A stretch of 64,000 nucleotides of DNA from Deltaproteobacteria bacterium (GTDB lineage Bacteria > Desulfobacterota > Desulfuromonadia > Geobacterales > DSM-12255): assembly GCA_021849045.1 (NCBI GenBank), contig JAJZTK010000003.1, forward strand, positions 1 to 64,000. The letters are read 5' to 3'. Positions within the stretch are counted from its first letter, which is position 1. Every line of letters begins with the position of its first letter. The position numbers and the translations under genes were made by a program. Of this stretch, positions 57,049 to 63,779 are shown piece by piece. A model generated the notes under the pieces. The model ran no database searches, was not told the DNA's origin, and saw nothing but the letters and a program-made list of their open reading frames with translations.

Positions 57049-58419
57049 TCAAACTGGTTCGAGCCGGGGAAAGTCCATCTCGGCGAGAAAGCGCCGTTCA
57101 AATACCGGGGTCCCGGAAAGGGGGATGATTGTCAATGAAGCGGCAAGCTGTTCGACAACTGCATACGACGCAGAACGGAGGGTTTCCTCAACACCGGCAA
57201 GGGCACCCTCCGTCACGAACCGGGCCACTTGTACCATGTTTTCCGTGAAAATTCCAACGCTTTTTAGCCCAACCGGGTTGAGGGAAACACCGAACGAGCC
57301 GGTCAGAACCACCTCCGCGAGGTCGGAGGCCTCTATCCCCGCCCGGGCCAGCAAAACATCGATGCCGGCCCGTATGGCGGCCTTGGCGAGCTGCAGCTGA
57401 CGGATGTCTCCCTGGGAGAGGTAGACCAGCGATGCGGCGTCCCGATAGACGATAAAAGCGGGCTCCCCCCCCAGCTCCACGATACGGTTCGCCAGATTGG
57501 TCCGCACCTCGGCCGGCAACAGGAGCCGCCCCGTCAGATCCACCACCCCCTCGGCCAGGAGCAGCATCATGGTGTCCAGCACACCGGAGCCACAGAGTCC
57601 ACGGGGAACCACCTCGCCGATCGTCTCCCACTCCAGGCGGGAACCGGTCATGCGGACCGAACGGATCGCCCCGGCAAGGGCCGCCATGCCGCAGGCCAGG
57701 TTGCCTCCCTCAAAGGCCGGCCCGGCCGCAGCGGAGGTGGCGTAGAGCCGCCCGCCCGCGAGCAGGGCTATTTCGCCGTTGGTGCCCAGGTCTATGAACA
57801 GTGAGGGGCAAGGGGTAAGGGATGAGGGGCGAACACCGAGGCCGTGGAGGAAGGCCACCAGGTCGCCGCCGACAAAACCGCCCGGCGACGGAAAGACGTA
57901 CAGTTGGGCGTCCAGGCTCCAGCCGAGCGAGCGTGCAGAAACCCGATGGCTGGAGGTCATTCGTGGGCGGTAGGGGGGAAAGGCGAGGCTCTCCACCGGC
58001 AGATCCAGAAGGAGATGGGACATGGCAGGGTTGGCGGCAATCGCCACCTGCGACAGGGCCGTTGCCGGCATCCCGGTCCGGGAGAGCAGGGCCGTGACCA
58101 GCCGTTCCAGTTCGGCGTTGACCAGGCGGGAGAGGGTCCTCCGCTCGGCCTCCCCTCGGCAGGCGTACTCCAGACGGCTGACCACATCGGCGCCATAGGG
58201 GCGCTGGGGGTTGAGACTCCCCTCCCTGGCCAGGAGCGCACCGGAAACCGTATCGAGGAGGGAGGCGGCGATGGTGGTGGTGCCCAGGTCAACGGCAACG
58301 GCCAGAGAGCGGGATGCGTCAGGCAAGCTCAATGGCGGCCTCCCGCCTGGGCAGGACCTCCCCCACCACAGCGGCGAAGAGACCCTCGTCACGGGCAACG
58401 GCCAGGAAACGGTCGGCAT
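57049..58419 (-). CDS. ASKHA-domain protein, RACo/RamA-like corrinoid-activator family (no ferredoxin domain seen); start uncertain, probably within 58300-58345
   Basis: [48 protein letters not shown]...[14 protein letters not shown]...[16 protein letters not shown]. Confidence 0.8.
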
Positions 58420-59356
58420 CGGCCTGGTCCAGGGCGATCAGCAGCCCCCCCGAGGTCTGGGGGTCGTAGAGGGGGAGCAGACGGTCGGCCCGACCGTCGC
58501 CGGCAACGAACCTGGCGTAGTGATCCCGGTTGCGATAGCAGCCGGCCGGCACCATGCCGTCGGCCACCAGGGCCGGTAGTCCGGCCATCAGCGGCACCTG
58601 GTCGACCTCCAGCCGGATGGTCACCCCGCCGCCGGTCGCCATTTCCCGGGCATGACCAATGAGCCCGAAGCCGGTCACGTCGGTGGCAGCATGGGCCGCA
58701 CAGTCCACCATCAGCTCCGCGGCCCGGCGATTCAGGGTGGTCATCCAGCTGACCGCTTCCGCCACGGTCCCGACGTCAGCCATCTCCGCCTTGATCGCCG
58801 TGGTGACGATGCCGGTCCCAAGCGGTTTGGTGAGTATCAGCCGGTCACCCGGCAGCGGGGTGGAGTTGCGGACGATCCTGCCCGGGTCGATCAACCCGGT
58901 CACGGACAGGCCGTACTTGAGCTCGTCGTCCTCCACCGTATGCCCCCCCACCAGGCAGACCCCGGCCTCCCGGAGCATTTCGGCCCCGCCGGCCAGGATC
59001 TCCCGCAGGACCGTACCGGGCAGGGAGCAGGCCGGGAAAAAGACCAGGTTCATGGCCGTCACCGGCCTGCCGCCCATGGCATAGACATCGGAAACCGCAT
59101 TGGCCGCGGCGATCCGGCCAAAGGTGTGCGGGTCGTCCACGAGCGGCGTGATGACATCCACGGTCTCCACCAGGGCGCAGTTCTCCGTCAACCGGTAGAC
59201 CCCGGCGTCATCGGCCGTTTCCGGGCCGACCAGCAGATCGGGGTCGCCGAACGGGCCGATTCCCTGCAGAGCGTCTTCCAGGCCCGCCGGGCCCAGTTTT
59301 GCCGCTCAACCGGCCGCTTTCACCATGGCTGTGAGTTTTATTTTTGCGCTGGTCAT
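58319..59356 (-). CDS. selD: Selenide, water dikinase containing selenocysteine (in-frame TGA at codon 17)
   Basis: Reading through TGA gives [74 protein letters not shown] at 59306-59308. Confidence 0.92.
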
Positions 59357-59379
59357 TTGAAACCTCTGTGTCTTGTGTC

Positions 59380-60668: not shown

Positions 60669-60885
60669 GCCAGCTGGGGGAGTTCGCAAGAACTGAGATC
60701 TACTAATCCCAGGGGCGTCAATTTTTCGCAAGGTCAAGGCTGTCGAGGGATTGCGCGGAGGCGTACCTGCGGGTACGCCGCACAAGCAAACCCGACGACT
60801 TACGCAGAGATTGCGGAAAAGTGGCGCACCCCACGGTGGAAACCCTTTGAACCTGATCCGGTTAATCCCGGCGTAGGGAAGCGGC
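60669..60885 (+). promoter_or_regulatory. TPP (THI) riboswitch, apparently interrupted by a palindromic insert
   Basis: 5' half GGGGGAGTTCGCAAGAACTGAGA, 3' half ACCCTTTGAACCTGATCCGGTTAATCCCGGCGTAGGGAA, P1 pairing gccagct / agcggc; upstream of thiED. Confidence 0.85.
60711..60832. repeat. MITE-like imperfect palindrome inserted within the riboswitch
   Basis: aggggcgtcaatttttcgca ... tgcggaaaagtggcgcacccc with centre ggcgtacc-tgcg-ggtacgcc (60760-60779). Confidence 0.75.
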
Positions 60886-60917
60886 CAGAAAACCTCTACC
60901 GTTCGTCTATTTCTGGA

Positions 60918-60947
60918 AGCCGCGACCCGCAATCGCGGCTTTTTTTG
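60918..60947 (+). terminator. Rho-independent terminator, expression platform of the TPP riboswitch
   Basis: agccgcga-cccgcaa-tcgcggct followed by T7, just upstream of thiED ATG. Confidence 0.85.
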
Positions 60948-60956
60948 TGCTATCAA

Positions 60957-62396
60957 ATGAATACACCAGCAGACGCCATACGGGGACTTTACCTTATCAC
61001 CGACCACGGTGACAACCTGGTCGCACGGGTCGAAGCCGCAGTTCGCGGCGGTGCGCGGGTCGTGCAGTTCCGCTCCAAGAGCCACACCCCGGAGGAACGG
61101 CTCGTCCTCGGCAGCGCCCTGGCCCGCCTCTGCCGCGAGCAGGGGATTCCGTTCATCGTCAACGACGACCTGGAACTGGCCTGCCGGTTGGATGCGGACG
61201 GCGTGCACCTCGGCCAGGACGACGGCGACCCGCGGGCCGCCCGTGCACGGCTGGGTGCCGGCAGGATCATCGGGGTCTCCACCCACAATCGGGACGAGGC
61301 GCTGGCAGCCGAAGCGGCCGGCGCCGACTATATCGGCCTGGGAGCCATGTACCCCTCGGGCAGCAAGGATATCGAGCATCTGGCCGGACCGGCGGCCGTG
61401 GCCGTTGTGAAGGGGTGCGTCACCATCCCGGTGGTGGCCATCGGCGGTATCACCCGTGACAATGCCGCGCCAGTCATCGATGGAGGGGCCGACAGTGTGG
61501 CGGTGATCTCGGCCGTCCTGGGAAGCCCGGACCCGGCCCTGGCTGCCGCCGAACTGGCGCTTCTCTTCAACCGCCGGCAGCCGTTCCCCAAGGGGAGCGT
61601 GCTGACCGTGGCCGGGAGCGATTCCGGCGGCGGGGCCGGCATCCAGGCCGACCTGAAGACCATCACCCTGCTCGGCTCCTACGGCGCATCGGTCATCACC
61701 GCCCTTACCGCCCAGAACACCCGTGGGGTCACGGCCATCCACGGCGCACCGCCCGCCTTTGTGGCCGGGCAGTTGACAACGGTCCTCAGCGACATCCCGG
61801 TGGACGTGGTCAAGACCGGCATGCTCCTCTCCGCCGAGATCATCGCCACGGTTGCCGGACAACTGGCCGCCTTCCACAAACGGCTTGTGGTGGTCGACCC
61901 GGTGATGATTGCCAAAGGGGGGGCAAGTCTGATCGACACTGACGCCGTGACGGCCCTGAAGCGGGAACTGCTCCCCCTCACCTACCTCCTCACCCCCAAC
62001 ATCCCCGAGGCAGAGGCGCTGACCGGGCTGGCCATCAGGGATGAGACGGAAATGGAGGCGGCCGGCCGGGCGATTGGCGGCATGGGGGTCGCAAATGTCC
62101 TGATCAAGGGGGGCCACCTGGCCGGCACCGAGGCGACGGACCTCTTCTTCGACGGACAAGAGTTCAAACGCTTCACGTCCCCGCGCCTGGCCTCGACCAA
62201 CACCCACGGCACCGGCTGCACCCTGGCCTCGGCCATCGCCACCTTCCTGGCCCAGGGAGAGCCGCTCCCCATGGCAATCGCCAGGGCCAAGGAGTTCATC
62301 ACCGCGGCCATCCGCCTGGCACGCCCGCTGGGAAGCGGTCATGGACCGGTGAACCATTTCGCGGCAGCACGGGAAGCAAACCTCGGGAGATGCTAG
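60957..62396 (+). CDS. thiED: Bifunctional thiamine-phosphate synthase / HMP-P kinase (ThiE-ThiD fusion)
   Basis: GLYLITDHGDNLVARVEAAVRGGARVVQFRSK (ThiE) ; VLTVAGSDSGGGAGIQADLKTITLLGSYGASVITALTAQNTRGV (ThiD). Confidence 0.95.
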   Translation: MNTPADAIRGLYLITDHGDNLVARVEAAVRGGARVVQFRSKSHTPEERLVLGSALARLCREQGIPFIVNDDLELACRLDADGVHLGQDDGDPRAARARLGAGRIIGVSTHNRDEALAAEAAGADYIGLGAMYPSGSKDIEHLAGPAAVAVVKGCVTIPVVAIGGITRDNAAPVIDGGADSVAVISAVLGSPDPALAAAELALLFNRRQPFPKGSVLTVAGSDSGGGAGIQADLKTITLLGSYGASVITALTAQNTRGVTAIHGAPPAFVAGQLTTVLSDIPVDVVKTGMLLSAEIIATVAGQLAAFHKRLVVVDPVMIAKGGASLIDTDAVTALKRELLPLTYLLTPNIPEAEALTGLAIRDETEMEAAGRAIGGMGVANVLIKGGHLAGTEATDLFFDGQEFKRFTSPRLASTNTHGTGCTLASAIATFLAQGEPLPMAIARAKEFITAAIRLARPLGSGHGPVNHFAAAREANLGRC

Positions 62397-62471: not shown

Positions 62472-63779
62472 ATGGCAACCACGCAATTGGAATACGCCCG
62501 CAAGGGGATCATCACCGACAAGATGACGCAGGCCGCTCTTGCCGAGGGGGTTACCCCGGAGTTCATCCGCGACGGCATCGCCGGCGGCAGCATCATCATC
62601 TGCCACAACGTGAAGCATGCCAACGGCGTCCCCCTGGCAGTGGGGACCGGTCTGCGCACCAAGGTGAACGCCAACATCGGCACCTCGGCCGATGACCTTG
62701 ATATCGCCAAGGAGCTGGAAAAGGCCCGCGTTGCCGTGAAGCACGGCGCCGACGCCATCATGGACCTCTCCACCGGCGGCCCGGTGGACGAGATCCGCCG
62801 CGCCATCATCGCCGAGACCAACGCCTGCATCGGCAGCGTCCCGCTCTACCAGGCAGCCCTGGACGCGGTTCGGACCAAGAAAAAGGCCATCGTCGATATG
62901 ACCGTGGACGATATCTTTGCCGGCATCATCAAGCATGCCGAGGACGGGGTCGATTTCATCACCGTCCACTGCGGTGTGACCCGCAGCACGGTGGAGAGGA
63001 TGAAGAACGAGGGACGGCTGATGGATGTGGTCTCCCGCGGCGGCGCCTTCACCGTGGAGTGGATGGCGTACAACAACAAGGAAAATCCGCTGTTCGAGCA
63101 CTTTGACCGGCTGCTGGAGATCGTCAAGGAGTACGACATGACCCTGTCGCTCGGGGACGGTTTCCGGCCGGGGTGTCTGGCCGATGCCACGGACCGGGCA
63201 CAGATCCACGAGCTGATCCTGCTCGGCGAACTGACCCAGCGGGCCGTGGCAGCGGACGTGCAGGTGATGATCGAGGGGCCGGGGCATGTCCCCCTGCACC
63301 AGATCCAGGCCAACATCCTCCTCCAGAAGCGGCTCTGCCACGGCGCCCCGTTCTATGTGCTGGGACCTCTGGTCACCGACATCGCCCCCGGCTACGACCA
63401 TATCACCTGCGCCATCGGCGGGGCCATTGCAGCGGCTGCCGGCGCCGACTTCCTCTGCTACGTGACCCCCAGCGAGCACCTGAAGCTCCCGAGCGTGCAG
63501 GATGTGCGCGACGGGGTCATCGCGTCCCGCATCGCGGCCCATGCCGCCGATATTGCCAAGGGGGTAAAGGGTGCCATGGCCAAGGATATCGCCATGGCCA
63601 AATGCCGCAAGAAGTTGGACTGGGAAGGCCAGTTCGGCTTGGCACTCGACCCGGACAAGGCCCGCCAGCTGCGCGCCGAATCGGGCGTTGCCGACCATGG
63701 CGCCTGCACCATGTGCGGCGAGTTCTGCGCCTACAAGGTGATGGACGACGCCATGGAGCGCCAGCGGGCGAACAGCTGA
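62472..63779 (+). CDS. thiC: Phosphomethylpyrimidine synthase
   Basis: [46 protein letters not shown]...[12 protein letters not shown]. Confidence 0.97.

What the first reader, a model, noticed from the sequence alone, without database searches (positions are those of the whole stretch)
60669..60885. TPP riboswitch interrupted by a MITE-like palindrome
Both canonical THI halves are present (GGGGGAG..CTGAGA and ACCCTTTGAACCTGATCCGGTTAATCCCGGCGTAGGGAA). The closing P1 helix (gccagct/agcggc) pairs across 205 nt, and an intrinsic terminator follows. Between CTGAGA and ACCC, where only a few nt are usual, lies a roughly 122-nt near-palindrome centred on ggcgtacc-tgcg-ggtacgcc. Its termini are mutually complementary, so the insert may fold into an extra long helix that leaves the aptamer usable.
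Basis: partly seen in the sequence, partly recalled or inferred. Interest (0 to 1): 0.7.

Follow-up and report, generated by a model that had tools for sequence, protein, structure and literature searches.

The report
Vitamin-B1 riboswitch carrying a repeat element
A vitamin-B1-sensing RNA switch in a Geobacter-like bacterium carries, in a side stem that is allowed to vary, a long hairpin belonging to a repeat family scattered through these genomes; the sensing core looks intact, and close relatives differ by a clean swap of just that stem.

Summary
A complete TPP aptamer (60669-60885), antiterminator and terminator precede thiE/D (60957) and thiC. The optional P3a stem is 143 nt, against 14-56 nt in about 65 related TPP riboswitches. 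The extra ~121 nt (60712-60832) is a copy of an order-wide repeat: 81 of 141 genomes, up to ~40 scored copies each. A 2009 Geobacter metallireducens paper describes a family with the same central palindrome. Same-position, same-orientation copies occur in the thiE/D riboswitch of six species in five genera. Three sister pairs differ by an exchange of the P3a stem: 17-18 nt versus 142-149 nt, with flanking DNA about 95% (two pairs) or 90% identical. All six interrupted riboswitches miss Rfam's RF00059 cut-off; the uninterrupted sister scores 73.7 bits. Best reading: a working transcription-terminating TPP riboswitch whose P3a has been replaced by an element-bearing version, tolerated because P3a does not touch TPP. 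Not shown: TPP response, mobility mechanism, and whether the swaps reflect recombination, repeated insertion or repeated loss.

The parts
60669..60675 (+). P1 5' strand of the TPP aptamer (GCCAGCT)
   Evidence: Pairs with 60880-60885 in the MFE fold, probability 0.78-0.91
60676..60698 (+). P2 5' strand, P3 hairpin and conserved CTGAGA
   Evidence: Direct reading; identical in the sister species
60699..60711 (+). Base of P3a, 5' side (TCTACTAATCCCA)
   Evidence: Pairs with 60835-60840 (GGTGGA) in the MFE fold; ends resemble those of G011, G014 and G017
60712..60832 (+). Repeat element forming the outer part of P3a (GGGGCG ... CGCACCCC)
   Evidence: 11 other matches in the genome, order-wide family; 24 of 38 hairpin pairs show changes on both sides across 63 copies. 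Outer limits uncertain by a few nt
60760..60779 (+). Central palindrome GGCGTACC-TGCG-GGTACGCC
   Evidence: same centre as the GRCGTAGCGCTGCTACGCC family of PMC2700814
60833..60841 (+). Base of P3a, 3' side (ACGGTGGAA)
60842..60879 (+). P2 3' strand and P4/P5 (ACCC...CCTGATCCGG...CCGGCGTAGGGA)
   Evidence: identical in the sister species
60880..60885 (+). P1 3' strand (AGCGGC), shared with the antiterminator
60881..60923 (+). Predicted antiterminator: GCGGCCAGAAA with TTTCTGGAAGCCGC, -11.4 kcal/mol
   Evidence: expression platform kept in the other five interrupted riboswitches
60915..60946 (+). Intrinsic terminator, stem GCCGCGACCCGCAATCGCGGC then T7
60957..62396 (+). thiE/D fusion (thiamine-phosphate synthase and HMP-P kinase)
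   Evidence: TIGR00693 and TIGR00097 above cut-off
62472..63779 (+). thiC (phosphomethylpyrimidine synthase)
   Evidence: TIGR00190 above cut-off

Best explanation
This is a working, transcription-terminating TPP riboswitch of the thiE/D-thiC operon whose optional P3a stem has been replaced by a long element-bearing version. The RNA folds the repeat as one long hairpin stacked outward from the P2/P3/P3a junction, so the TPP-binding parts (P2, CTGAGA, P4/P5) and the P1 switch are unaffected. When TPP binds, P1 forms, its 3' strand AGCGGC cannot pair with the antiterminator, and the terminator stops transcription. Without TPP, AGCGGCCAGAAA pairs with TTTCTGGAAGCCGC and transcription continues. 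The element-bearing P3a most likely moves between Geobacterales as a module, by recombination at the nearly invariant aptamer flanks, rather than jumping anew into each riboswitch. Shown: anatomy, repeat membership, recurrence, sister-pair exchange. Inferred: TPP response (about 0.85), harmlessness of the hairpin, and route of exchange (about 0.45 for recombination).
For: Aptamer and terminator are intact and directly upstream of thiE/D and thiC. The window and Geobacter argillaceus are identical at 59/60 bases 5' and 90/90 bases 3' of P3a, so nothing else in the switch has decayed. P1, P4 and P5 pairing probabilities are close to the uninterrupted sister: P1 0.78-0.91 versus 0.92-0.99, P5 0.54-0.55 versus 0.50-0.51. 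Six species in five genera carry the element there, always in one orientation, with core motifs and antiterminator/terminator kept. The hairpin is kept by paired changes among riboswitch copies, e.g. GGGGCG/CGCACCC, GGAAATG/CATTTCC, GGAAACG/CGTTTCC. Exchange rather than plain descent: interrupted and uninterrupted forms alternate between sisters, the ThiE/D tree needs 6 changes (at least 4 forced) and rejects one clade (p 3e-5), and the modules are more alike than the neighbouring gene (window-G011 89% versus 75%, G014-G017 97% versus 86%). The ends of P3a outside the repeat are also alike in the window, G011, G014 and G017, as expected for one shared module.
Against: No expression, binding or probing data. 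The P2 pairing probability is lower than in the sister (0.23 versus 0.52), and the unconstrained MFE of the full leader is a non-native fold 2.3 kcal/mol better than the P1-forming one. The element tree spreads riboswitch copies over several subfamilies (at least 4 changes forced), though one clade is not rejected (p 0.25). G063 and G066 modules are not clearly alike to the others at their ends. Family-wide conservation of the hairpin also explains high module identity.
Confidence: 0.6

Rival explanations
1. The element inserted independently several times into the P3a of the thiE/D riboswitch, because this hairpin is a preferred or tolerated target.
For: Riboswitch copies fall into different subfamilies on the element tree; the element is abundant in these genomes; close sisters lack it.
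Against: All six have one orientation and nearly the same place; P3a ends outside the repeat are alike in four of them; the ordinary P3a arms of the sisters are not found flanking the element; other copies sit mostly at gene ends.
Confidence: 0.22
2. One old insertion in an ancestor of these families, kept in six lineages and lost repeatedly elsewhere.
For: Shared position, orientation and partly shared P3a ends; G061 has a 56-nt P3a with possible remnant arms.
Against: Many precise losses would be needed, some within 5% divergence, each leaving an ordinary P3a, two of them similar (TGAGGC..GCCTCAA).
Confidence: 0.2
3. A repeat insertion that broke the riboswitch; thiE/D is now unregulated or always off.
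For: Rfam's model falls below its cut-off; the full-leader MFE is non-native.
Against: Core and switch unchanged from the sister; recurrence in six species with the core kept; the low score comes from the model's handling of a long insert.
Confidence: 0.1
4. The interruption is an assembly artefact.
For: The window's genome is in 271 contigs and repeats can mis-join assemblies.
Against: Five other assemblies, including a single-contig genome (G017, Geobacter sp. AOG1), have the same arrangement.
Confidence: 0.02

Closest known systems
TPP riboswitch (RF00059, THI element) with optional P3a stem, Barrick and Breaker 2007 (PMC2258182)
   Different: P3a here is 143 nt and contains a genomic repeat; close relatives exchange it cleanly; it scores below Rfam's cut-off.
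[quoted passage not shown]
   Same: Same central palindrome and dispersed, mostly intergenic copies.
   Different: The passages read do not mention placement inside a riboswitch; its alignment file could not be read here.
MITE-type bacterial repeats
   Same: Short, multicopy, complementary ends, no coding capacity seen.
   Different: No target duplication above chance, no autonomous partner found.
REP elements with RAYT (Y1) transposases
   Same: A GGAG tetranucleotide directly precedes the central hairpin, as in some REPs (own knowledge, not tested).
   Different: Not next to the Y1 genes examined, and G017 has 41 matches but no Y1 gene found.

Membership tests
TPP riboswitch (RF00059) | Conserved core CTGAGA ... 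ACCCTTTGAACCTGATCCGG ... GTAGGGAA with P1, P2, P4, P5 | tested here: met
TPP riboswitch (RF00059) | Covariance-model score at or above the gathering score (a curator's threshold, not a structural feature) | tested here: not met
   41.4 and 39.3 bits against 54.3; the sister without the element scores 73.7. The shortfall follows from the long insert, so I do not count it as a missing defining feature
TPP riboswitch (RF00059) | Upstream of thiamine genes with a switching platform | tested here: met
TPP riboswitch (RF00059) | Binds TPP and controls expression | not testable with these tools
   Needs probing or a reporter
Geobacter short RNA element family (PMC2700814) | Central palindrome GRCGTAGCGCTGCTACGCC in dispersed intergenic copies | tested here: met
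   Most copies in this order have GGCGTAGCAGCGCTACGCC or its complement GGCGTAGCGCTGCTACGCC; the window copy has a variant of it
MITE | Multicopy, short, non-coding, inverted ends | tested here: met
MITE | Target-site duplication | tested here: inconclusive
   2 of 82 against 7.6 expected by shuffling; boundaries uncertain
MITE | Autonomous transposon with the same ends | not tested
   Only Y1 transposases were searched
REP/RAYT | Y1 transposase gene flanked by the repeat | tested here: not met
   No convincing copy of the element (one weak pattern match in L190) near the eight best Y1 loci, and no Y1 gene found in G017

The most novel reading that the evidence does not exclude
The element-bearing P3a is an exchangeable regulatory cassette that adds a function to the riboswitch (for example a processing site, slower co-transcriptional folding or a second input) and spreads between Geobacterales by homologous recombination at the conserved aptamer flanks.
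Probability: 0.1. Interest if true: 0.75.

Novelty: new variant of a known kind. Interest (0 to 1): 0.42.

Why it matters
It gives a concrete origin for long peripheral inserts in riboswitches: a genome repeat taken into a permissive stem. Natural sister pairs that differ almost only in that stem make a ready-made test of what P3a does. It also shows that annotation at Rfam's cut-off misses these riboswitches, so 'missing' TPP riboswitches in this order may be element-bearing ones.

Tried and rejected
An alternative contiguous 5' half: Infernal proposes one starting at 60736, but it lies within the repeat and has no CTGAGA, while the upstream half is kept letter for letter in the uninterrupted sister. 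REP/RAYT origin: the GGAG-hairpin layout suggested it; Y1 genes were searched and not linked. Target-site duplication: none above chance. Single-clade test of riboswitch copies on the element tree: unresolved, p 0.25. Papers on repeats inside riboswitch aptamers: nothing evident among the titles and abstracts listed. One literature look-up failed for a too-short term and was not repeated.

Full report
What is there. The leader of the thiE/D-thiC operon (60669-60946) holds a complete TPP aptamer followed by a predicted antiterminator and an intrinsic terminator. The downstream genes are thiE/D (60957-62396) and thiC (62472-63779) by NCBIfam. Between CTGAGA and ACCC lie 143 nt. In about 65 other TPP riboswitches of the same order that I extracted, this gap is 14-56 nt and holds the optional P3a stem. 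The insert is therefore in a place known to vary; Barrick and Breaker counted P3a in 552 TPP riboswitches and its absence in 355, and noted that riboswitches tolerate long stem-loop inserts at specific sites (PMC2258182).

What the insert is. The own genome has 11 further matches to it, and 81 of 141 genomes of the order have matches at E <= 1e-12; G014 and G017 have about 40 scored matches each. Among 63 copies, 95% of cells of the hairpin are paired and 24 of 38 pairs show changes on both sides, against a mean of 15 in shuffles (0 of 500 reach 24) and 12-18 when the partners are slid. The strand transcribed in the riboswitch folds more stably than its complement in 86 of 86 other copies, by 11 kcal/mol on average. 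Part of this covariation could come from palindrome correction at the DNA level, but the conserved asymmetric bulges speak against that as the whole cause (inference). The G. metallireducens genome paper describes 24 'predicted short RNA elements' with the same central palindrome, GRCGTAGCGCTGCTACGCC (PMC2700814). No Rfam family other than TPP matched this stretch at E <= 1.

Where else it sits in a riboswitch. Six species in five genera have it in P3a of the thiE/D riboswitch, in the same orientation: the window, G011 (MAG NC_groundwater_1996), G014 (MAG H2geo), G017 (Geobacter sp. AOG1), G063 (MAG NC_groundwater_76) and G066. The names were assigned by matching contig lengths and sequences between collections. 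Aptamers are 216-223 nt, against 88-92 nt in the uninterrupted orthologues measured, apart from G061's 130 nt. None of the six reaches Rfam's gathering score, whereas the G. argillaceus orthologue scores 73.7 bits. The whole window yields no Rfam match at the gathering score.

How it got there. Sister pairs are telling. Window and G. argillaceus: flanks 59/60 and 90/90 identical next to P3a, about 95% over longer stretches, P3a 143 versus 17 nt. G011 and G002: 59/60 and 89/90, about 93-96%, 142 versus 17 nt. AOG1 and Geomobilimonas luticola: about 90%, 149 versus 18 nt. In none do the arms of the ordinary P3a flank the element, so this looks like an exchange of the stem rather than an insertion into it. 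On a ThiE/D tree the interrupted state needs 6 changes (at least 4 forced by supported branches; one species was entered twice under two locus ids) and one clade is rejected, p 3e-5. The modules are more alike than the neighbouring gene: 89% versus 75% for window-G011, 97% versus 86% for G014-G017. An element tree of 93 copies neither supports nor rejects one origin. I favour exchange of a P3a module by recombination at the conserved flanks, ahead of repeated insertion and of old insertion with many losses; the data do not settle it.

Does it work. In the ensemble, P1, P4 and P5 of the window aptamer form about as often as in the uninterrupted sister; P2 less often. The full leader has two states within 2.3 kcal/mol, one of them with P1 and the terminator, as a switch needs. 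The core has been kept in all six species. I infer that the switch works and that the hairpin is tolerated; nothing here measures TPP response.

Mobility. No target duplication was seen (2 of 82 copies, 7.6 expected). Y1 transposase genes occur in several of these genomes but not beside the element, and none was found in G017. Other copies lie mostly right at the stop codon of a gene on the opposite strand: 46 of 54 with long flanks. The name 'MITE' is therefore a resemblance only.

Verdict. Real, recurrent and well supported as anatomy; a new variant of a known kind.

Noticed in passing
L002, L103-L130, L165-L181 (element copies): Copies of the element outside the riboswitch sit right at the stop codon of a gene on the opposite strand in 46 of 54 cases with long flanks; most also have a start codon of an opposite-strand gene leaving the other side. 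Cause unknown.
   Followed up: partly
window 58319-59371, minus strand: selD-like ORF with an in-frame TGA in AAG-U-AAK at residue 22 of the stretch read, probably a selenocysteine-containing selenophosphate synthetase; the mechanical ORF list starts it late.
   Followed up: partly
L137 (G061), about 1368-1497: A 56-nt P3a with GGAAAACGCC..GGCGTC arms resembling the ends of the element without its core: a deletion remnant or a pre-insertion form.
   Followed up: no
L007-L012 (own genome): A second subfamily with the same central palindrome; most copies have ends GGTTGCTCAAAAATAG...CTGTTTTTCAGCAACC.
   Followed up: no
L090 139-211 and G002:C2:982247-982346: A further copy of the element lies just upstream of the thiE/D leader in G011 and G002.
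   Followed up: no
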